This document shows positions 55 through 58,091 of a DNA stretch of 64,000 bases, piece by piece (the stretch's first letter is position 1; every line of letters begins with the position of its first letter). Origin of the DNA: Mesodorylaimus sp. YZB2_4 (taxonomy: Eukaryota; Nematoda; Enoplea; Dorylaimida; Dorylaimidae); assembly GCA_030248295.1 (NCBI GenBank), contig JASANH010000924.1, positions 124,001 through 188,000 on the forward strand, in the 5' to 3' direction. Below the pieces are notes generated by a model. That model saw only the letters and a program-made list of their open reading frames with translations, did not search any database and was not told where the DNA came from. Made by a program: the position numbers and the translations under genes.

Positions 55-3000
55 CTATTCCTTACCTAATTCAGTGGCCGAAACAGTACTGCTCGAAGAT
101 GTCGAGTCAGCCCGTCTTCGTTTTCTGCTAGCCATCATCGGATCTTCGACCATGATGCACAATCGATTTTCACTTTCCGAATTGATAGACGGCAGCGAAC
201 ACGCGCCACTCGAACCATTGGTCAAGCATGACGAAGTTGTACTGCCCACGGACGATCGACGCGAACTGTTAGCATCGCCGTCCACTCCAATCGCCATTGC
301 GTCCATGGCTGTCGCTGAGGACACTCGACCAGGCATCATCGACACACGCTGCGGTGCAGGCTGTTGTTGAATCACTTGCTTGCGAGGTGCCTGGTTGCCG
401 TTATTAATTGGACCCGTATTCTTAGCCGTAATTATAGTCTCCTCCGACTCGGATACAGTTGGCAATGTAACGCCGGTGCGACTCGATAATAATTCCAAAT
501 GACGTCGTAGCAGGCATTGCTGACGATACAACTGCTCCTTGTCGGCGATCAATTGACGATCTTGGTCTTCCAAGGCCTGAAAACCATCATACGATTAGTC
601 ACGTGATCTGGTACACTCACGTGCCAGCTGACCAGCCTAATGCTTGCACTAATCATGGACTCAGCTTACCTTAATGTACATCCTCGCTTTCGTCAATAGA
701 TTCAAAGTCGTGTGACGACTGCTGTCAGGTCCCAATGGGACCAATTCTTTCAAAGCCTCCAAACAGGTTCGCAGATGAGCTCGCCTGAAAAGGTAAAAAG
801 CCAGTTAGCCATCACCGCAACTAGTTTCACAATTCGCATCAGTCACGGTCGCTGCTGCTCATTACAACTTCAAGTTTCATCTCCTTTTTCAAATTTTTCC
901 AACATCTTCAGTATTTCTTCTTACTCATCCCCACTTCCTCTCTTTCAACTGCTTGCACGTGACTCATGCGTGTTTCTCTGCCAAGGTGGCATCCCAGGGA
1001 AGCAAAAACGCGGGGTTTAACGAGTAGGTAGAATTTTTGATGCCACACATACTTTCTACGCCAACTAGATTTTCAAGGGCGAACGGAGGGCGAAGTACAA
1101 AACGGAAAGCGCTAAGAGTCCACTAGAATTCCGATCTGCTAACAACAGCTGCTTCTAGTCTGCCACCTATTCATCCATCCCAGCTGGCGTCTACTTTCTC
1201 TGATGCAACACACTTCGAGATAAAACACGTGAACCAAATGCGCATTGGCTCCCTTCTCAAAGCTTACGTGAACACCAGACAAGGTTTACTAGGCAAATAG
1301 CGGGTATTGTTCCCGACGCAGGGAGGAGCGCAAGATTAGTCGGCTCCTAGCTCTTACAGTAGGAACACACTAGTCCAAAGGTCTATTAAAAACTAGAATA
1401 GCAAACACAACTTTGCTTATCGCCTTGAACTTTGTCCTAGTTACTTTTTCTCATTTCGCAAACTCGTGATCCACAGCATCTGCGCTGCCTCTTCAACAAA
1501 CTTGGCACCAATTTTGAAAGACACATATTTGCATGCCCATATAAGACAAGGCGATCGATTTTTCCCCAGTCATAACGAAGTTCAAAACATTTTCTACGCA
1601 GTCGTCTCGACGTTACGTCGTTGTTACGACCAACCAGGCCGTTTGTCTTTTCAACTCGTTCACCCTGTCCCCCCCCCGATCTCGTGCAATTTGTCATTAA
1701 CTCTAGTCGCACATAACTTGGTTATTTTAGTCACTAAGGCAACCAAGACTCAGAGAGGAATCAACTAGACGACTACACCGACACAACAAGACCCACTCGC
1801 CATGCACCCGGAACAAGCTCGCTATGCAAGCAATCCGTGAATTTATGCATTCGAATTGGAAGAATTTCACCTGCTCTCATCCCAAATGCTTTGCTCTACG
1901 AGTGAGACATGTGTCAACAGCAGCGACCAGACTGTTTGCCAAGGTCAAAAATAGACCTAGACAAAAATCGATTCTTACCTGTTTTTCTCCAACTCGTTGT
2001 GCGTAGCTCTGAAATGAAAAACAAAACACCTTTAGTCTGCAGTTTGGTATTGCTCCAACAAAGAAAACATTGCATTGTGCCAGAATGGTTTAGACACCAC
2101 TTTTTCCATGGCCCTGGGGGGGGGGGGGGGTAGGCTGACAACGTGTCATTATACGTAAATTTGCACTATCAAGTATCCAAACGCGACTTGATTCTTATCC
2201 AATTCACGATTCCAGCACGTGAACAAAGTTTGCGCGCCGTCTATGCGTCGCGCCGCACGTCCTTTTTGTTTCTTCTCTTATCCGGAAGCTTTAGTCCGTA
2301 AAAGGATTCACTAGGCGAGTGGGCGAGGAATGGCAGATACGTGACTGACGAGTACATGCACCGCATCGAACCCATTTTCGGAAAGTTGATGATAAGAAAC
2401 AACATGAAGTTGCATCATCCAAATACACGTGCGCTCAAACCTAACACCTTGCTTTATCTTAGCAAACTTTTTTTAATTTTATTTGAGCTGCTTAAATGTT
2501 GGCGTTTCGACAAAGCGCGTGCAAAGAGGCTTAGCTTTCGAATCGAAAGAAATCATTCCCGCAAAATACCTCGATGAAGTGGGCTTAATATGCGCACAAG
2601 TTCGCACGATTGAAAAATAAACTTTTGCAGGTTTCAAACATGCTGGCCAAGTCACCATCCTCGATTCGCTCGCACGTGAAAGCTTACAAGAGAGCACATT
2701 GTTGCCCGAGTCTGCCAATCGTAAAAACGCCCATCGCCGTGACTATGCTATTCCGAATTTCGAGTACTTTGCCCCCGCTCGCCCCGATCTCCCAAAACAT
2801 TCAATGCCTGCATAAACACGTGGCGCAGATTGCTAGCATTTGACGAATGGGCATTGATCGTGAGAAGCAATGATTGCCTTCACGCGGAAACGACTTTTAG
2901 CAATTCTTATTCCATAAAAGGCCAGAATCGCATTGAGCATAGTCAAACTGCGCAGTGGGAAACGTTGTGTATGCGTTGGCACGCTCTCTTTTTGATTGGC

Positions 3001-4466
3001 ACGATTCGAGAAGTCGGGCTTATCGATAAAGTAGCCGACACGAGTCAGTCAACGTGGCCTGGCTGAACCTTGAGCGATTAACGAACGAAAGTTTTCTATT
3101 TGACAAATTCGCACGCTTCGCATCCGCGTGAAACGCACGTTTCACCAGAAGAAGGCACCCACGCCAGGAGAGCACGTGCGAAAGGTGCTCTGTCACGCGC
3201 TTGGCCACTCAGCGCAAATACGACGCAGTATTGTGCAAAAAAAGGATTTAGACCTAGTTGTAGAGGGTGGGTGCAGGAACAGAGCCAACGTGGGAGACAA
3301 GAATAAGAAAAGCGAAAAATGGAGGTGAAGCAAAATATTTTCCTCTAGCGAGACAGGCTGATAAGGTGATTGGATATCTGCGGTTCTGTTTCGTATGGGG
3401 AGGAAGGGTGCAGTGCCAAGGCGTGGCTGCCTGTCCAAAGGTCGTTTATGCCCCTCCTGACAAGGTGTAAACATGAGCAGTGATAAGCTCTGGCTCTTCG
3501 ATATGTCTTACTGTAGCGATCTTACCTGTTCATGTGGCAATTAGACGAAGCTGACGTGGCGCTGACGGATCGATTGGACGTGTGCTGATTGCCGCCCAAG
3601 CCATCGTCGCTGTGTACACTTCGACTTCCGTTGCTATTTTCGCCATTGGCCACACTCCCATAAACCAAAGCGCTACTCGTCCGTCTCCGCTTTGGCGCTG
3701 TTGCTCCTGACGACGGCAAAGATTGTTGTTGAAAACAAGCTTGCGACTGATGTTGAGTCGGCGGCGATCGTTGGTGATGCGCCTTATCGGTGGCCACAGT
3801 CATGGGTGCACTAATGGGCACTGCTTGAATCATCTTCCGTTGCCCATTTAATTCAACTGAAGTAAGAAGGCCGGGCGTTAGGATGGTGTGCATGACGCAT
3901 GTCTCATAGTCAAACAATGCAAGCACCCAGTCATCATTTCCCTCGTCTCTTGCCTACCACCATCCCATCCCAGTCGTCCTCCTACGTGCATTGTGGTTCC
4001 AAAAGGGAAAACATGCCAATCGAATTGGGCGCGCGCGTGGCGGCAGCCGGCTGATGCAGTGGGGGGGGGGGCTGAAGGGCACGTGAATTTCACGCCCGCC
4101 TCAGGCCGAAAGGTCGAAGTACACATGGGCTACACGCGTTACGAAAGCGGGATGTTTTGTTGTGAATGAGTTTGATTGGACGAAAATGATTTTTTTCGTG
4201 GCATTCCGGCATAACTGCATCAAAACTTACATAAACACCAATCACCTAGGTTGCGCGTCATAGGACTGAAATTCACGCCAACCCCCTCGCCCTCCTTTCC
4301 ATTGCGCGTGGATGGAAATTTCAGAAAAAGCAGGTAGCTCCAGAAAATATTTACTTCAATATGAGCTTTGAGAAATAGCTAACTTACCTTTGGGCTTTGA
4401 ATTGGGTTGATGTTTTCGTTCCAAAAATTCAGCAGCTTCCAAAAGCTGATTGACATTGGTCATCAT
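55..4466 (-). CDS. Mxd/MAD-family bHLH-leucine-zipper transcriptional repressor (358 aa)
   Basis: Five coding exons join in phase: 4466-4388, 3856-3526, 2008-1979, 784-670, 576-55. Exon 1 starts [18 protein letters not shown], the Sin3-interaction helix of Mad proteins. Exon 2 is a Ser/Gln-rich linker. Exons 3-4 encode the basic helix-loop-helix ([15 protein letters not shown], then [20 protein letters not shown]), with the His, Glu and Arg that read CACGTG. Exon 5 carries the zipper ([20 protein letters not shown]) and a Ser/Thr-rich tail with a basic KRRR patch. By family knowledge such proteins dimerise with Max, bind E-boxes in the nucleus and recruit Sin3/HDAC against Myc. The single MAD-type gene could serve as Mxd or Mnt orthologue; I cannot separate these. 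5' UTR exons were not located. Introns hold many CACGTG sites (see separate entry). Confidence 0.88.
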
Positions 4467-5125
4467 GAAGAAATCTTCAGGCTTGACGTTTACAGCCATT
4501 CTTCTCATTCAAAACGACGCAAGAGCATGAAACCTTTTCTCCCAGGCGATCAAGGAATTTGTCAGGACTGTCAAAAGTTGCTGAAAAGAGCAAAGCGAAT
4601 TGGTCATGCAAATGGTACTGTTCCAAAAGGAGGGCAGGAGGGTGAGGGATACTGTAACCCCTGCCAGCTAGGTACATGTGTGATAAAGCTGCCCGGTTGC
4701 GAGCCGACCGCCTCGAACGAGAATGAGAACGCGAGTAAGGGGGGCTGGCTGGAGAGCCGAGGTTGCGACGGCAGCCGTGTCCGTCCTACCTAAATGGGCG
4801 GCAAAGACCTGTAATTTAACATGCACCAGGTATAAGCTATGCGACGAGTCGTGAGGTCGCAGACAGAAGAAAGAGACTCGATCGAGCCGCACGCCGTCCA
4901 GCCACAACCATGTTGCATTGAGGACCGTTCACGCGCACCCAAGCAGGCCCCTATCCAACCAGTCACGTGAGAGCAGCCAATCGGAGAAGAGAGCGCACGT
5001 GAAGTCGGTGTTATTTTGGACCAGCGCCCCGATCTCCGTCCAAAGTCCGCGTGCATCGACGACTCGAGCGCGTGGTCTGCCATAAACACGGCTGCTGACG
5101 ACGACGACGACTAGGAATACACGTG
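600..5125. promoter_or_regulatory. Cluster of 13 CACGTG E-boxes across the Mxd gene and its upstream region
   Basis: CACGTG occurs at 600, 618, 956, 1226, 2216, 2426, 2673, 2817, 3173, 4080, 4964, 4996 and 5120. My hand count finds about 11 copies in the other 59 kb, so the density here is roughly ten times higher. Several share the form GCACGTGAA. CACGTG is the core site of Myc/Max/Mxd and related bHLH factors; autoregulation of this gene is an inference. Confidence 0.7.
1979..2008 (-). other. 30-nt microexon encoding the DNA-contact half of the bHLH basic region
   Basis: Between a CAG acceptor (2011-2009) and a GTAAG donor (1978-1974) lie 30 nt that read A THN ELEKN in the phase left open by exon 2 (ends AAC AG) and exon 4 (starts G CGA). 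Without it exons 2 and 4 also join in frame, giving a protein whose basic region lacks the E-box-contacting His and Glu. So exon skipping would yield an in-frame isoform that keeps the dimerisation domain but should not bind DNA. Confidence 0.85.
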
Positions 5126-45095: not shown

Positions 45096-46578
45096 TCAAC
45101 TTTGAATCAATTTCGCGTCTTTGATATGAGTTTTTAATATTTTCATCATGCTGAACGCTTTGAATTTCTTGCATTCTAAAGGAAAAACAACTAAAATCCA
45201 GAGATTTAAGTATTTCAAAGCTGACTTACTAAAAACTTTCTCGAGCTGCTCATCGCAGATGACATATTGCTTATTCTTTGGGTCCTAAAATAAAATGTCA
45301 CATATTGGATATTTTTACTGAAAGTAAGTCCATACCATGAGGTTCCGCTCTTTGAATATCTTCCACATTCGACTTACGACGTCTTTTCTGGCCAACTAGA
45401 ACCAATAAGCTGATAAGATAAAAAGGTCGAAAAGTTTTTAAAAATATTTACGCGGTCAGTCCCCATAACAGCAGCCAATTCGTGTGACAATACGCACTCT
45501 TGACTATATAAAGAGTTCCCTAAAGAATAAACTATGCGAACAACAAAACCACAGTAACAAAGATGTGTGTACCTTTCTTTTTGCTACTTCCTTCTGAAGA
45601 AGCGGACTTAGATTTCGATGCCTTGGGTTTCTTTTCAACCTAAAACTAAGAATCCATTACTAACACCGTCATGACGTTGAAAAGTTCCGTATACAGCCTT
45701 TTGCTTCGACGAACGAGGCCTCATTCGGAGCTCCTGCTGTTGCAGTTTTCGAGCTAATGCTTCGTCATCAACCTAGAAAAATGTATGCTTTTGTATAAGA
45801 GAAAAATGAAGATAATTGTCACGATTTACGTCATCATCGCTTGAAGATGCGTCGCTGCCTTTAGCTTGGGCGTCAGATTCACGTCCCTTCTTACTTGACG
45901 ACTTCTAAAAAAAGCAAGTTATGTAAAATATTATAAGCGGATTAAAGCAAAAAACTGACCTTATGAAAATTATTATCGACAATGCCTGCATCCGAATCAG
46001 AGCCTGTACCCGAAGTAGAAGATGAACGACTTCTTTTTCGCTTTGACTGCGTTGAGCTGGTATTTGTCAATGACGAAGAACCGTTCTTGTTATCGGTCGA
46101 GACCGCCGAGGCACTTGGTTTGCCGTTGGACGCATCTTCACTGTCTGCTTCACCATCATCGTTTTCACTATCGCTTCCACTTTCTTGCTTTACGTCCTTC
46201 TCATCATTGATCAATGACATCAAAATGTCATCGATTTCTTGTTTTCTGAAACAGCAAGGTACCGTTGTTGAGATGAGATGGCAGAGATGGGTACAGTGGT
46301 AAGATTATGGCCTCCCACTGCAAACCACTGGCTCTACACCATCTGTGCATTACATAGATATAATGTGGCTTACGTCAACAGGATGCTAAGACAAGTGTAT
46401 CTATATCTAGATTGCACGAAGATGGGCACATGTCCAGCGTTACTAGGTGGGTGGGAACATATCCGCAAGTCCCTCTCTTATCCGTACCGTGGTGTCAAGT
46501 CCGTACGAAACTTCTCTTCCAATTGTTTTCGAACAGATTTCGATGATAAAGACGACAAATCGGCATTCCTGAGTATTT
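45096..46578 (-). CDS. DEK_C plus SWIB-domain chromatin protein (5' end not found)
   Basis: Exons (minus): 46578-46488, 46245-45960, 45904-45830, 45772-45695, 45639-45573, 45519-45452, 45395-45336, 45284-45230, 45175-45096; 285 residues known. The first two exons form a DEK C-terminal domain (ILRNADLSSLSSKSVRKQLE, then TPRKQEIDDILMSLIND). An acidic and Ser-rich, Lys-rich nuclear linker follows. The last four exons encode a SWIB/MDM2-type domain (LYSQECVLSHELAAVMGTDR, RMWKIFKERNLMDPKNKQYV, CDEQLEKVF, FKAFSMMKILKTHI). This pairing is known from UAF30/TRI1-like proteins that act in transcription and chromatin. The first exon (start codon) lies upstream and I could not identify it. Confidence 0.87.
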
Positions 46579-47120
46579 CTAAATTTACAAAATAAACTTG
46601 CAGATGTGCAACAAAAACCGACACTCAAGCTGCTTGGCCTATACCTCGAATTGAATCGCGAATCTGCAATTCTGAAATCGAAGCCATATTCTACGACTTC
46701 TTTAATTCCATGCACAAAAAACAACTGGTCGCAAAATATCACACCAACAAGTTCTCAAAGCCAAATGTTTCAATACAAACTAGATATTTTTTCCTTTCTT
46801 TTTCTTTTTAGACAAGGCAAGACAAAACAGAACACACAGCCGGTCGATGCCCCCAGTCCCGCCTGCGCTGCGACATTTCCGGTTACGATAAAAGTGTCAG
46901 TATCAGATAAAAATATAAAAATATATAAAACAAAACTTCCGCAAAAAAAAGATAGCTTAAAGAATTATCGCGCATTGTTCCCGAAAAGTCTCGCTAGAAT
47001 GTGAGAAATAATCCATAAATCTATATAATTTATCTGAAACTTATATTTACCGTGTCTGCACTTTGCGCGGGCCTGCGAATTTGGAAAAAGAAAAGACGTG
47101 CGTCTAATCCTGCAGCGTAA

Positions 47121-48280
47121 AGCGCGATGTATACTCGAAATGGAGAACGTGCGCACATCCAAAGTCCATTTCAAAAAAGACAGAAAACAGGGGTGTGCGC
47201 GCTCTTTTTGGCGATCTGTCCATTTTCTAGTATACATTGCCTCGAATGGAGACCCAAATGGAAGGAATGGTCCCTCCATCGAATGGAGACGGGAAGCCTG
47301 ATGGAGACTGTCTCCATTCGTGCCGCACGTGACGAGAGGACTTGGAAATTAATTCTGAATCCTCGTATTTTGGAATATTTCGAGAAAAATCGGCCAGTTT
47401 TGGCCATTTAGGAGGTACAGGCTCGTGAGCTTTTATGTAAATTCGATGAGTGGAGAAAACCAGGTATGTAATATCCGTATTTTACTTATTTCTTAATATT
47501 TTTTGAGGAGTGGCCTTAAAAAATACAGCATGGCTGTACAATGCACCCTCACCGTAAAGAGTCACATTTTGCGGGAGTTCCGTCATCTCACCTGCACTGT
47601 TATGAGCAAGGTTTGCAAGGTTTCGTCTTTAGCAATCATGTGCTAGATAAATTATAGGCCTAGGTATCATCAATCCGTTTATATGTTGGTCCTATTTCAG
47701 ATATGGAATTCGGATCACGTTGGCTAGAACGGGGATAGGAAATACTTGGTTCAGCTAAACAAAGAACATGTCGACGCCGGAAAAAGAAAATCAAGTACCT
47801 ATCGTTCCAACATAATGAAATTCGCGATGATTAGGCATCGCTGGCTCGAGGCAAACATGATGCTGGCGCGGTGTCAGAGTCTATTAGCAACATAAAAGAA
47901 GAGAACTAAACAGAAGATATGATGTTTCAAGCGAATCGATGATCTGTCTTGGCTAGATGATCAATTATTACTATTTTACTATTTTACTCCGTACTTATTT
48001 TATGTACAGTACGGTACTCTTATTTTGGAATTCTTTTGTGGTGAAAAATTTTCGGTTGTATCAGTTTGTAAAATTCCCAGTCCGTCAGACATCCTGTAGC
48101 TTTTTATTTCAAGAAATCTATATTTTATGTGCACATTTTTCATTATGTAATGCTAAGGTAAAATATAAGTGGAGACGCGCACATTTTTTCTTGTGCGCAA
48201 CACTTGGAATGGTCCACGAGGAGCCCGTCTCCATTCGCGATTTCTCCATTTTGTCTCCATTTTCGAGTATACATCGCGCT
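47121..48280. mobile_element. PIF/Harbinger-like MITE (1160 bp) inside the Mutator-like left TIR
   Basis: Perfect 17-bp TIRs AGCGCGATGTATACTCG, extended by AAATGGAGA-like sequence, flanked by TAA at 47118-47120 and 48281-48283. Three-base TWA duplications are typical of PIF/Harbinger. Interior holds repeated ATGGAGAC motifs and no transposase. Confidence 0.8.
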
Positions 48281-48868
48281 TAACACGCACAATTTTCCCA
48301 ACGGTTGCAGGCAGTGCTGCATACTTACTGCAAATTGCCGGTAATTCAAATTTTGCTTCCTCCTCCCTCCCTCCTCCTCCTTGTGCTCACGTCTGCTAGT
48401 TGCGTTTTACTTTACTTTGTATGATGTCTGACCTACGATATTAGTTTCGCGTCTTCCGATCTTCGAAATGATTCCTTGCAAGTTTTGTGGAAGTTCAGTA
48501 CGTTTCCCGACCGAAGATCTCTTTGGCGTAATTGCAAATTTTTCCATTGAAATGATGGTTTTCCTTGCTTGACGTGCGATGAGGTCTTTGGGAACCAAAC
48601 TTCTCACTGAACTTTATGAATCGACTTTACCTACTTTCGACCTGAACATGCTTCCGAAACACGAATCAAAGAATGGGTGCTATGGGCGAGGAAAGGGGCG
48701 GTTCAAATACGACGTCGTATGCAAATCAGCAATTTTTGACCCCCTCCACCCCCCCCCTCCCCCATCGTATTTTGTCGTTTTCCACCTGACCCCCCTTTAC
48801 GACGTCGTACAAGCCCATGCCCCCTCCCCCCCCCCCCCCAACCCTCAAAGGGGGAGTAAAGACATATC

Positions 48869-50065
48869 CAGTGTTGCCAACCTGAAACAACACGACCGGC
48901 GAAAGCTGAGATAAAAACCGGCGAAAAACCGGCGACAAAATAAGTGACCGGCGACAGAAAACCGGCGATCATAAAATGCATCAAAACACAGTGCTACTTT
49001 GTATACTTTTACTTCACATCAACAACTCGTGCATTTCGCATTAACGAAAAACAAAAATCGCCTTCTGCTGCCACTTCCTATAGGACTGTTTCAAGCACTG
49101 TAATCATGAATTCTTTCCCAAATTTTAAAACTGTCTCCGTCAACGACCAACTCTTCTATCTTCTCTTATGATCGTATATATTTTCCTAAAAGCGACCTAG
49201 GAGTTTTTTGATGGCAGATTCATCTTCTTCTGGGTTCAAACTATTGGGTAATGATTTTTCCTGATTTTCCCTGATTTTCCCAGGTTTTTGAGACAATAAT
49301 CCGATCTTTCCCCTAACATTTTTACCCTGACCTAGACTTGGTAGAAGAATTTTTAACTGGTTACATCTCCTAATCATGACATTTACAGATGAAGCCGTTG
49401 GAAAATAATTTGAATTTGGATGAAATGATGAAGCGATACCAATCCTTTAAACCACTTCATATTGTAAAGACGCCAAACTTTAAGCCAATGCAGCCTCTCA
49501 GTTTCTTCTGAATTTGGCTCTGAACCTACCATTTTCCCTGAGTTTTACGGGGAAAATAGGAAATTCCCTTGAAAAGTGTTCCAACCTTGTATGAGCCGTC
49601 TTTTTGCAAATTATTCAAGAGAATGGACGAAATGCTCAGGCATGACTTAGCCAGTAGGTATAATAACCTAAAGTGATTGGGCTGCAGGGCATCTAACGAC
49701 GTACTGCCCAGAAAGTTCGAAACGAAATAAAAAATTACTAGATAAGCGTTTCCAAATTTTGACGCAAAAAAAAGGGTGAGAAGAGGAAAAAGGAGATACA
49801 CAGCAATCTTGTGGACTGGGTTTAAATGATATGTCCGTACTTGGCACAGAAAAAGAGAATGCGTCAACATCAAAGCTGGCGGTCAATGCCAAAGTTTGCA
49901 CACTGTAGTGCTGGAGAGGGAAGCTTCCAGAACCGGCGACAAAACCGGCGATATTGAGGCTGACCGGCGAACGGAACCGGCGAAGATACCCGACCGGCGA
50001 AAAACCGGCGACAGGGTCAAAAACCGGCGACAAATCGCCGGTTTCCGGCGAAGTTGGCAACTCTG
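48869..50065. mobile_element. Non-autonomous hAT element (1197 bp) with 8-bp duplication
   Basis: Starts CAGTGTTGCCAAC and ends GTTGGCAACTCTG; identical 8-bp GACATATC on both sides (48861-48868, 50066-50073). Both ends carry arrays of the subterminal motif ACCGGCGA (about 6 left, 8 right). CAG...CTG termini, 8-bp duplication and subterminal arrays are the hAT pattern. No transposase. Confidence 0.92.
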
Positions 50066-50339
50066 GACATATCTCAAAAAAAATTTTCATGAATTAATAT
50101 CTGCACACTTCACCACACCGTAATTTGATTTCAGTAACAAATTTGGTAGAGGTCAAATGTGCTGATGGTTTCACAGCTTGACTCTACGCCTTCAGTTCTC
50201 AAAGATTGTTTGGGAATTTTTGAAATGCGCTTGTTAAAAACCGAATAAGCATAAAAGCAATCGAATAAGTATAAAAGCAAAACGAATAACTCTGTATGAT
50301 AGAGCACATTTTCTTTATCAAACTTTCACTTTTTTGCTT

Positions 50340-50700
50340 TAAAAAATTTTTTGGACTGAACCCCGTTTTTGCCTTCAGCTGGGCAGCAGTCAAACCTTGT
50401 AAGCAGGGCTGTGCGGGGGCAAGCACACCTGCAGATTCCCGCTGCGTGCCTCCTCTAGGAGCACCTCCACACGTGGGCATCCTGGACTGGACACCAACTT
50501 CCTCGGACGATGGCGGGCGGGGTGCCGTCTCTCCACTCGGAGCACCTCTAGGGTACCAGGTGAGTCACCCACGGCCCGGCGTGCAAGGTCAGCGAGGGTT
50601 TATGGTTCGCAAACCGACCTCTATCATCGGGGATTGAACCCAGGGTGATTCCAGCCTCTGCCTTCTGAGCAACATAGAAAAACAAATGCCAAACCGCGCT
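50340..50700 (-). mobile_element. SINE copy inside the Mutator-like element
   Basis: Head at the high end (GGTGCAGCGCGGTTTGGC; box B-like GGTTCAATCCC), tail GGCAAAAACGGGGTTCAG then A/T-rich. Same family as 26751-27238. Confidence 0.8.
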
Positions 50701-51107
50701 GCACCAAACGCGGCTGCTTTCTCTAACAGACTGAGTCTGGCCAATCCACGTTATTATAATCAAAAATATGTTAAATAGGTAACCCAAAAGTGGCGGACCT
50801 GTGATCATCTGACCGTAATTAGGCTCTAGCAGAAGAGTTCCAACGGGAGGAAAAACGCTGCAATACCTAGTACGTTGCTGATACGCTTGTAGAAAATAAT
50901 GAATTAGAATAAAGCATGAACATGAACATGAAGCAAGAGTTTTGGCACCCTGTGGCGCTTTCAATATGCATTACAGCGCAATTTGAATTACCCGCAATTT
51001 GCAATAAGTATGCAACGCTGCCTGCGACCGTTGGAAAAATTGTGCGTGTTACGTTGCAGGATTAGACGCACGTAAAGAAAAGAAAAGAAAATGAAAATAT
51101 ATTTCAG

Positions 51108-51121
51108 TTTTGGCGCCAAAA
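51108..51121. promoter_or_regulatory. Palindromic E2F-type site in the SMC3 promoter
   Basis: TTTTGGCGCCAAAA, a perfect palindrome containing TTTGGCGC on both strands, 60 bp above the SMC3 start codon. E2F control of cohesin genes in S phase would fit; binding is inferred. Confidence 0.6.
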
Positions 51122-51180
51122 ATTTAGGAATTTGGCTTGCTTGGGATTAATCATTAAACTTCAGATTTTCGTTGTTTGAA

Positions 51181-58091
<6,911 letters not shown>

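What the first reader, a model, noticed from the sequence alone, without database searches (positions are those of the whole stretch)
47087..51082. Four-layer transposon nest, every layer datable by its target duplication, ending at the SMC3 promoter
A Mutator-like element (9-bp AAAGAAAAG duplication) has a Harbinger-like MITE (TAA duplication, 17-bp perfect TIRs) inserted in its left TIR, a hAT element (GACATATC duplication) in its body and a SINE further right. Removing the MITE restores a left arm that matches the right arm over about 95 bp, which proves the order of insertion. The outer element ends about 107 bp above the SMC3 start codon, so its TIR may act in, or have supplied, that promoter.
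Basis: partly seen in the sequence, partly recalled or inferred. Interest (0 to 1): 0.72.

Follow-up and report, generated by a model that had tools for sequence, protein, structure and literature searches.

The report
Nested transposons beside a nematode gene
A mobile DNA element that landed just upstream of a chromosome-cohesion gene in a nematode-like genome was later hit by two other mobile elements; the nest is real but of an ordinary kind, and one of its supposed late layers is in fact the oldest.

Summary
The nest is real and its borders are right. Leaving out the inner 1,160-bp element gives a left arm that matches the right arm at 87 of 94 bases. Other genomic copies supply empty sites for that element (5 copies) and for the hAT element (4 copies). 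The outer element is MULE-like: 9-bp duplications, and a 3.24-kb relative with the same ends and a MULE transposase domain.

(1) The SINE is not a late layer: it sits at the same place in seven other copies, so it rode along when the family spread. (2) The nest is two deep, not four; three elements lie side by side in one host. (3) The inner element makes 3-bp duplications, but AAA, TGT, TAT, ACA and AAT occur beside TAA/TTA, so the Harbinger label is doubtful.

The element lies between divergent genes: a DEK_C-domain gene (408 bp to the left) and SMC3 (107 bp to the right). Insertion just upstream of start codons recurs in this family (5 of 13 sites within 250 bp), but two unrelated families also do it (3 of 14; difference not significant). 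Whether the TIR acts as SMC3's promoter is untested.

The parts
47087..47095 (.). left 9-bp target duplication AAAGAAAAG of the outer element
   Evidence: low-complexity sequence, but the 9-bp length is seen independently in L019 (9/9), L012 and L013 (8/9)
47096..51073 (+). outer element: non-autonomous MULE-like transposon, about 1.6 kb without its two late inserts
   Evidence: TIR copies in the genome; relation to 3.24-kb transposase-bearing copies L018/L019
47096..47120 (+). left TIR, outer 25 bp, interrupted by the inner element
47118..47120 (.). TAA duplication of the inner element, left copy
47121..48280 (+). inner 1,160-bp non-autonomous element, 20-bp perfect TIR AGCGCGATGTATACTCGAAA, 3-bp duplications; superfamily unassigned
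   Evidence: 46 genomic matches, fragments included; duplications; empty site in five MULE copies
48281..48283 (.). TAA duplication of the inner element, right copy
48284..48352 (+). left TIR of the outer element, rest
48594..48696 (+). remnant of the MULE transposase gene, brought next to the left part by an internal deletion
   Evidence: 84% identical to L019:2876-2988; protein match at 48629-48703 to residues 119-143 of the transposase query
48861..48868 (.). GACATATC duplication of the hAT element, left copy
48869..50065 (+). 1,197-bp non-autonomous hAT-like element (CAGTGTTGCCAAC end, repeated ACCGGCGA motifs near both ends)
   Evidence: 45 genomic matches, fragments included; 8-bp duplications at other copies; empty site in four MULE copies
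50066..50073 (.). GACATATC duplication of the hAT element, right copy
50345..50716 (-). tRNA-type SINE with B-box-like GGTTCAATCCCC, ends approximate; carried by the MULE family
   Evidence: ARAGORN finds no tRNA
50980..51073 (-). right TIR of the outer element
51074..51082 (.). right 9-bp target duplication AAAGAAAAG
51181..51195 (+). SMC3 first coding exon (MYIKQ), start codon 107 bp from the MULE end
   Evidence: exon read by eye; SMC3 by a later exon; ATG
46645..46687 (-). first coding exon of a divergent DEK_C-domain gene, start codon 408 bp from the MULE's left end
   Evidence: exon 2, inside 46481-46624, matches PF08766 DEK_C, E=1.5e-10; exon 1 and start codon read by eye

Best explanation
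An ordinary two-deep nest of recently active cut-and-paste DNA transposons. A SINE landed in an internally deleted MULE, which then spread, presumably by borrowing the transposase of 3.24-kb relatives, taking the SINE along. One copy inserted into the roughly 0.5-kb space between the divergent start codons of SMC3 and a DEK_C-domain gene, leaving 9-bp duplications. A non-autonomous hAT-like element then entered its body, and a 1.16-kb element with 3-bp duplications entered its left TIR; which of these two came first is not resolved. The landing place fits an apparent tendency of DNA transposons in this genome to settle just upstream of start codons, most likely because that DNA is accessible (inferred). 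SMC3 most likely keeps working because core promoter function lies in the 98 bp left between duplication and ATG (inferred). The order of insertion is shown by sequence; the borrowed transposase and the causes are inferred.
For: Arms match at 87 of 94 bases once the insert is left out. Five other copies (L009, L012, L013, L015, L016) have the uninterrupted CGTAACACG, and four (L009, L013, L014, L015) have a single GACATATC. The SINE stretch is collinear in seven other copies (L009, L012-L017). L019 has a perfect 9-bp duplication and L012/L013 8 of 9. MULE domain PF10551 at 33.6 bits against a cut-off of 27.6 in L019. Nearest copies compared: inner element 3 of 1,160 differences (L023), hAT 8 of 1,190 (L031), MULE 13 of 1,585 (L015) or 6 of 1,563 plus 15 indels (L009). 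Start-codon distances.
Against: No empty site of the outer element itself: the SMC3 flank gives one match in the assembly. Of the six other copies with both ends, L015 shows no 9-bp duplication, L018 only 7 of 9, and L009 only a likeness of 9 in 11. The inner element and hAT could in principle have entered before this copy moved, though a MULE with a broken TIR is unlikely to transpose. No chromatin or transcript data were available, and no matched random control for the closeness to genes could be made.
Confidence: 0.87

Rival explanations
1. The MULE TIR has become part of the SMC3 promoter: transcription of SMC3 starts in, or is controlled by, the right TIR.
For: The TIR end lies 107 bp from the ATG; arms of the same family lie 61-237 bp upstream of four other gene starts (gene identities). 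An abstract states that Mutator TIRs carry promoters (PMC3310237, search listing only).
Against: No transcript data. Two unrelated families with different ends also lie close to other gene starts, so closeness alone says nothing about this TIR.
Confidence: 0.12
2. The MULE transposase, through its C-terminal PHD finger, directs insertion to promoters marked by H3K4 methylation.
For: PHD finger PF00628 above cut-off in a frame of L019 (25.5 against 24), and in one frame with the transposase C-terminus in L018, there just under the cut-off (22.2); the motif was found in 5 of 19 transposase loci scanned, L018, L019, L051, L052 and L060. 5 of 13 insertions have a homology-supported gene start within 250 bp.
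Against: hAT and inner-element insertions do the same in 3 of 14 sites; Fisher P=0.42 against 5 of 13. 14 of the 19 loci scanned showed no PHD motif; some of these may be diverged or truncated copies, which was not checked.
Confidence: 0.07
3. The SINE is an independent late insertion into this MULE copy.
For: The SINE is a large family: 3,123 candidate places, of which 40 were scored.
Against: The SINE is at the same place in seven other copies and in an older copy, 80% identical over the SINE stretch, whose flank matches the MULE by eye (L091).
Confidence: 0.01

Closest known systems
Mutator-like elements (MULEs), animal clades such as Spectre
   Same: 9-bp duplications, TIRs of tens of bp, MULE transposase domain, a C2H2-like finger (below Pfam's cut-off), short non-autonomous derivatives
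   Different: the 3.24-kb copies have a C-terminal PHD finger; in PMC6446971 the term 'PHD finger' occurs twice, both times for Rehavkus (passages)
Rehavkus
   Same: 9-bp duplications and a PHD finger (PMC6446971, passages and section 8)
   Different: no minisatellite inside the element in L019; hosts named there are arthropods/insects and annelids; no Rehavkus sequence was compared here
hAT non-autonomous elements
   Same: 8-bp duplications, CAGTGTTGCCAAC-type ends (family traits recalled)
   Different: no transposase-bearing partner seen; no search for a hAT transposase was made
PIF/Harbinger MITEs
   Same: 3-bp duplication, TAA in this copy
   Different: 8 of the 13 matching duplications are not TAA or TTA; ends begin AGCGCG
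Tm1, a Mutator/Foldback family of root-knot nematodes (PMC3169594, search listing only)
   Same: Mutator-type element in a nematode
   Different: not compared at sequence level

Membership tests
MULE (Mutator superfamily) | target duplication of 8-11 bp | tested here: met
   window 9/9 (low complexity), L019 9/9, L012 and L013 8/9; weaker: L018 7/9, L009 9 of 11; none in L015
MULE (Mutator superfamily) | MULE transposase domain in a full-length relative with the same TIRs | tested here: met
   L019, PF10551 33.6 bits against cut-off 27.6
MULE (Mutator superfamily) | TIRs at both ends | tested here: met
   94-bp arms with 7 mismatches
Rehavkus | PHD finger in the transposase | tested here: met
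   L019 above cut-off but in another frame than the transposase; L018 in the same frame but just below cut-off
Rehavkus | minisatellite before the 3' TIR | tested here: not met
   the only arrays found in L019 lie at 4996-5045, outside the element at 1052-4288; L018 not tested
Rehavkus | transposase groups with Rehavkus in a tree | not tested
   no reference sequence at hand
hAT | 8-bp target duplication | tested here: met
   window 8/8; of seven other copies, perfect in L031, L032, L034 and L035, 7/8 in L037, unclear in L036, none in L033
hAT | hAT transposase in an autonomous partner | not tested
   no search for a hAT transposase family was made
PIF/Harbinger | 3-bp target duplication of the form TWA | tested here: not met
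   3-bp duplication in 13 of 16 copies with both ends readable; TAA or TTA in 5, other triplets in 8; the TWA rule itself is recalled
PIF/Harbinger | Harbinger transposase in a partner with the same ends | tested here: inconclusive
   the one longer copy fetched (L067) seems to owe its length to a LINE insertion, judged by eye; no transposase search was made
tRNA-derived SINE | internal Pol III B box and high copy number | tested here: met
   B-box-like GGTTCRATCCC in the window and 5 of 6 other aligned copies, ATTTCAATCCC in L093; 3,123 candidates. No tRNA found by ARAGORN; no A box was established

The most novel reading that the evidence does not exclude
A PHD-finger MULE family has repeatedly placed nearly the same TIR (94 bp; only its outer 45 bp at the HMG-box gene) 61-237 bp upstream of unrelated basic genes (BUD23, FAM50A-like, a THAP gene, SMC3, an HMG-box gene), and the TIR now acts as a shared promoter or regulatory element for them.
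Probability: 0.06. Interest if true: 0.6.

Novelty: new member of a known kind. Interest (0 to 1): 0.25.

Why it matters
As a nest it is a clean example of ordering insertions with empty sites. Two details are of wider use. A SINE was multiplied by a DNA transposon that carried it. And insertions of three unrelated DNA-transposon families in one genome lie about 50-240 bp upstream of start codons of basic genes, which can be tested genome-wide. Whether such insertions alter or supply promoters of essential genes such as SMC3 is a direct question for transcript mapping.

Tried and rejected
MULE-specific promoter targeting through the PHD finger: raised after five MULE copies proved to lie near start codons, then weakened by the hAT and inner-element controls. 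Codon-usage model for gene starts: trained on 22 window ORFs, too weak, used only as a printed side score. Autonomous partner of the inner element: L067 is a copy with a LINE-like insert. SL trans-splicing as the reason the insertions are tolerated: TTTCAG-type acceptors lie between element and ATG in SMC3 and BUD23 only, 2 of 8 homology-supported gene starts (which also listed one unnamed ORF without and the DEK_C gene with one); Rfam SL1 was not found, but the control genomes did not ring either, so this is inconclusive. Rfam on 47000-51300 gave three matches, all microRNA models far below their gathering scores. In one search the four hAT comparisons after L031 (L032-L035) are artefacts of my script picking the wrong strand, and the line 'pre-insertion join' repeats TAA by a coordinate slip; neither was used.

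Full report
What was checked. The window lies in a 145-Mb assembly of 1,067 contigs. It is probably a nematode: the transthyretin-like family PF01060 has 27 listed matches over the cut-off there and rings in none of the 14 control genomes; that this family is nematode-typical is recalled, and what the controls are was not shown. The arms 47096-47120 + 48284-48352 and the reverse complement of 50980-51073 differ at 7 of 94 positions; the alignment score is 150, and the best of 200 shuffles was -2. The right arm has 23 matches in the genome. In the 13 stretches then fetched, 21 ends were listed, 19 of which reach the terminal base.

What the outer element is. Two copies of 3.24 kb, L018 and L019, carry the same TIRs. 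L019 has a perfect 9-bp duplication, TGTCGACGA. Its frames hold a MULE transposase domain and a PHD finger above Pfam's cut-offs, and a C2H2-like finger below its cut-off. In L019 the PHD finger is in another frame than the transposase; in L018 it is in one frame with the transposase C-terminus, at 22.2 bits against a cut-off of 24. Both copies have their transposase split over frames. The window element matches such a relative over about 300 bp at the left, a 100-bp piece of the transposase and about 150 bp at the right. It is thus a deletion derivative that also holds about 1 kb of other sequence, the SINE included. Six other copies have both ends: duplications are 9 of 9 in L019, 8 of 9 in L012 and L013, 7 of 9 in L018, a likeness of 9 in 11 in L009, and none in L015. 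L010, L011, L014, L016, L017, L020 and L021 lack one intact end.

Order of insertion. Copies L009, L012, L013, L015 and L016 have the left arm uninterrupted with one TAA, and L009, L013, L014 and L015 have a single GACATATC where the window has the hAT element. These are true empty sites, stronger than the arm match. The SINE is different: the stretch 50066-51073, SINE included, is collinear in L009, L013, L014 and L015, and its part from 50120 or 50139 on, also SINE included, in L012, L016 and L017. The eight best hits of the SINE search are the window and these seven. An older place (L091, 80% identical over the SINE stretch) shares flank with the MULE by eye. So the SINE is the oldest layer, and it was multiplied by the DNA transposon. 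Among the copies compared, the nearest differ at 3 of 1,160 bases for the inner element, 8 of 1,190 for the hAT, and 13 of 1,585 (L015) or 6 of 1,563 plus 15 indels (L009) for the MULE. All layers except the SINE are therefore recent, and inner element and hAT cannot be ordered securely.

The inner element. Its perfect TIR is 20 bp. Of 18 copies looked at (window, L023-L029, and ten pairs of ends L068-L087), 16 have both ends readable; L078 and L084 do not. A 3-bp duplication is seen in 13 of the 16: TAA (window, L074, L080), TTA (L070, L076), AAT (L068), AAA (L023, L024, L027, L082), TGT (L025), TAT (L028), ACA (L029). None is seen in L026 and L072, and L086 has 2 of 3. In L024, L027, L074 and L080 one terminal base of the element has to be taken as mutated for this reading. 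The length of 3 is clear, the TWA rule of Harbinger (recalled) is not met, and I leave the superfamily open.

The hAT element. Duplications of 8 bp are perfect in the window, L031, L032, L034 and L035, 7 of 8 in L037, unclear in L036 and absent in L033.

The neighbourhood. The SMC3 start codon is 107 bp from the element's end; the exon at 51648-51785 matches SMC3 chains at E=1.6e-20. On the other side a gene with a DEK_C domain (PF08766, E=1.5e-10) reads away from the element, its ATG, placed by eye, 408 bp off. The element thus split a divergent intergenic stretch of roughly half a kilobase.

Is closeness to start codons special? Among 13 insertion sites of the family (L010 and L011, which show the same 14 flanking bases, counted once), five have a gene start supported by homology within 250 bp, the gene pointing away: BUD23 at 61 bp (PDB match of a downstream exon E=4.3e-12), FAM50A-like at 84 bp (aligned from residue 1, E=8.9e-11), a THAP gene at 100 bp, SMC3 at 107 bp, and an HMG-box gene at 237 bp. 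The other eight (L010/L011, L013, L014, L015, L016, L017, L020, L021) gave none; L014 has a thioredoxin-domain gene with a start about 540 bp away and L017 an unidentified ORF at 93 bp. As controls I looked at seven hAT and seven inner-element sites. The listings were not quite alike: up to 1,400 bp and ORFs of 45 aa or more for the MULE, 900 bp and 48 aa or more, printed shortened, for the controls. Within 250 bp of control ends: an enoyl-CoA-hydratase-like gene at 53 bp (Pfam match below cut-off, E=7.1e-5), prohibitin-2 at 101 bp (E=0.0055, with a Band_7 exon behind it), and PRPF4 at 130 bp (E=3.4e-30 for its second listed frame). An ORF of 281 aa at 25 bp without a Pfam match (L035) and a PARP-type exon whose start was not located (L036) were not counted; gene starts near 390 and 425 bp (L029, L026) lie beyond the limit. 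MULE 5 of 13 against controls 3 of 14 gives Fisher P=0.42. Against an assumed 30,000 genes, 8 of 27 has P=4.6e-5 and against 40,000 P=3.4e-4; the controls alone, 3 of 14, have only P=0.033 and 0.067. Gene numbers are assumptions, the 250-bp limit was set after seeing the data, and start codons were picked by eye, so this is a lead and not a measurement. Several gene names were first guessed from memory and then tested; Maelstrom, my guess for the HMG-box gene, was not confirmed.

What is known. The title and start of the abstract of PMC2774946 (search listing only) report that maize Mu insertions coincide with marks of open chromatin and that Mu elements make 9-bp duplications. PMC6446971 (passages and section 8) describes MULEs as tending to insert in or near genes, with duplications of 8-11 bp, and uses 'PHD finger' only for Rehavkus. 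PMC13359780 (abstract, outline and passages) treats arthropod MULEs and has no occurrence of PHD in its main text. Searches for MULEs with PHD fingers and for SINEs inside Mutator-like elements listed nothing that described this combination, but only listings of the top papers were seen.

Verdict. It is an ordinary nest of known kinds of elements. Its best by-products are the SINE that travelled inside a MULE and the recurring position just upstream of start codons.

Noticed in passing
L019:3744-4061 (+), L018:1285-2409 (-), L051, L052, L060: PHD finger at the C-terminus of a MULE transposase with C2H2-like and SWIM-like motifs, without a minisatellite in L019; the motif recurs in relatives 34-41% identical in the transposase.
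   Followed up: partly
L023 left flank, L024 right flank, L037 right flank: Insertions of two other DNA-transposon families 53, 101 and 130 bp upstream of the start codons of enoyl-CoA-hydratase-like, prohibitin-2 and PRPF4 genes.
   Followed up: partly
L067:775-3624 (-): Frames that look by eye like a LINE (reverse transcriptase and endonuclease) sit inside a copy of the 1.16-kb inner element, another nest.
   Followed up: no
L010 and L011: Two contigs (C967, C282) show the same 14 flanking bases and left end of one insertion: perhaps a duplicated or allelic contig end.
   Followed up: no
L056, L057, L058: A second MULE subfamily with TIRs starting ACCCGGCACT and approximate 9-10-bp duplications.
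   Followed up: no
G000:C460:20974-23587: A hAT copy and an inner-element copy lie about 300 bp apart, a second close pairing of the same two families.
   Followed up: no
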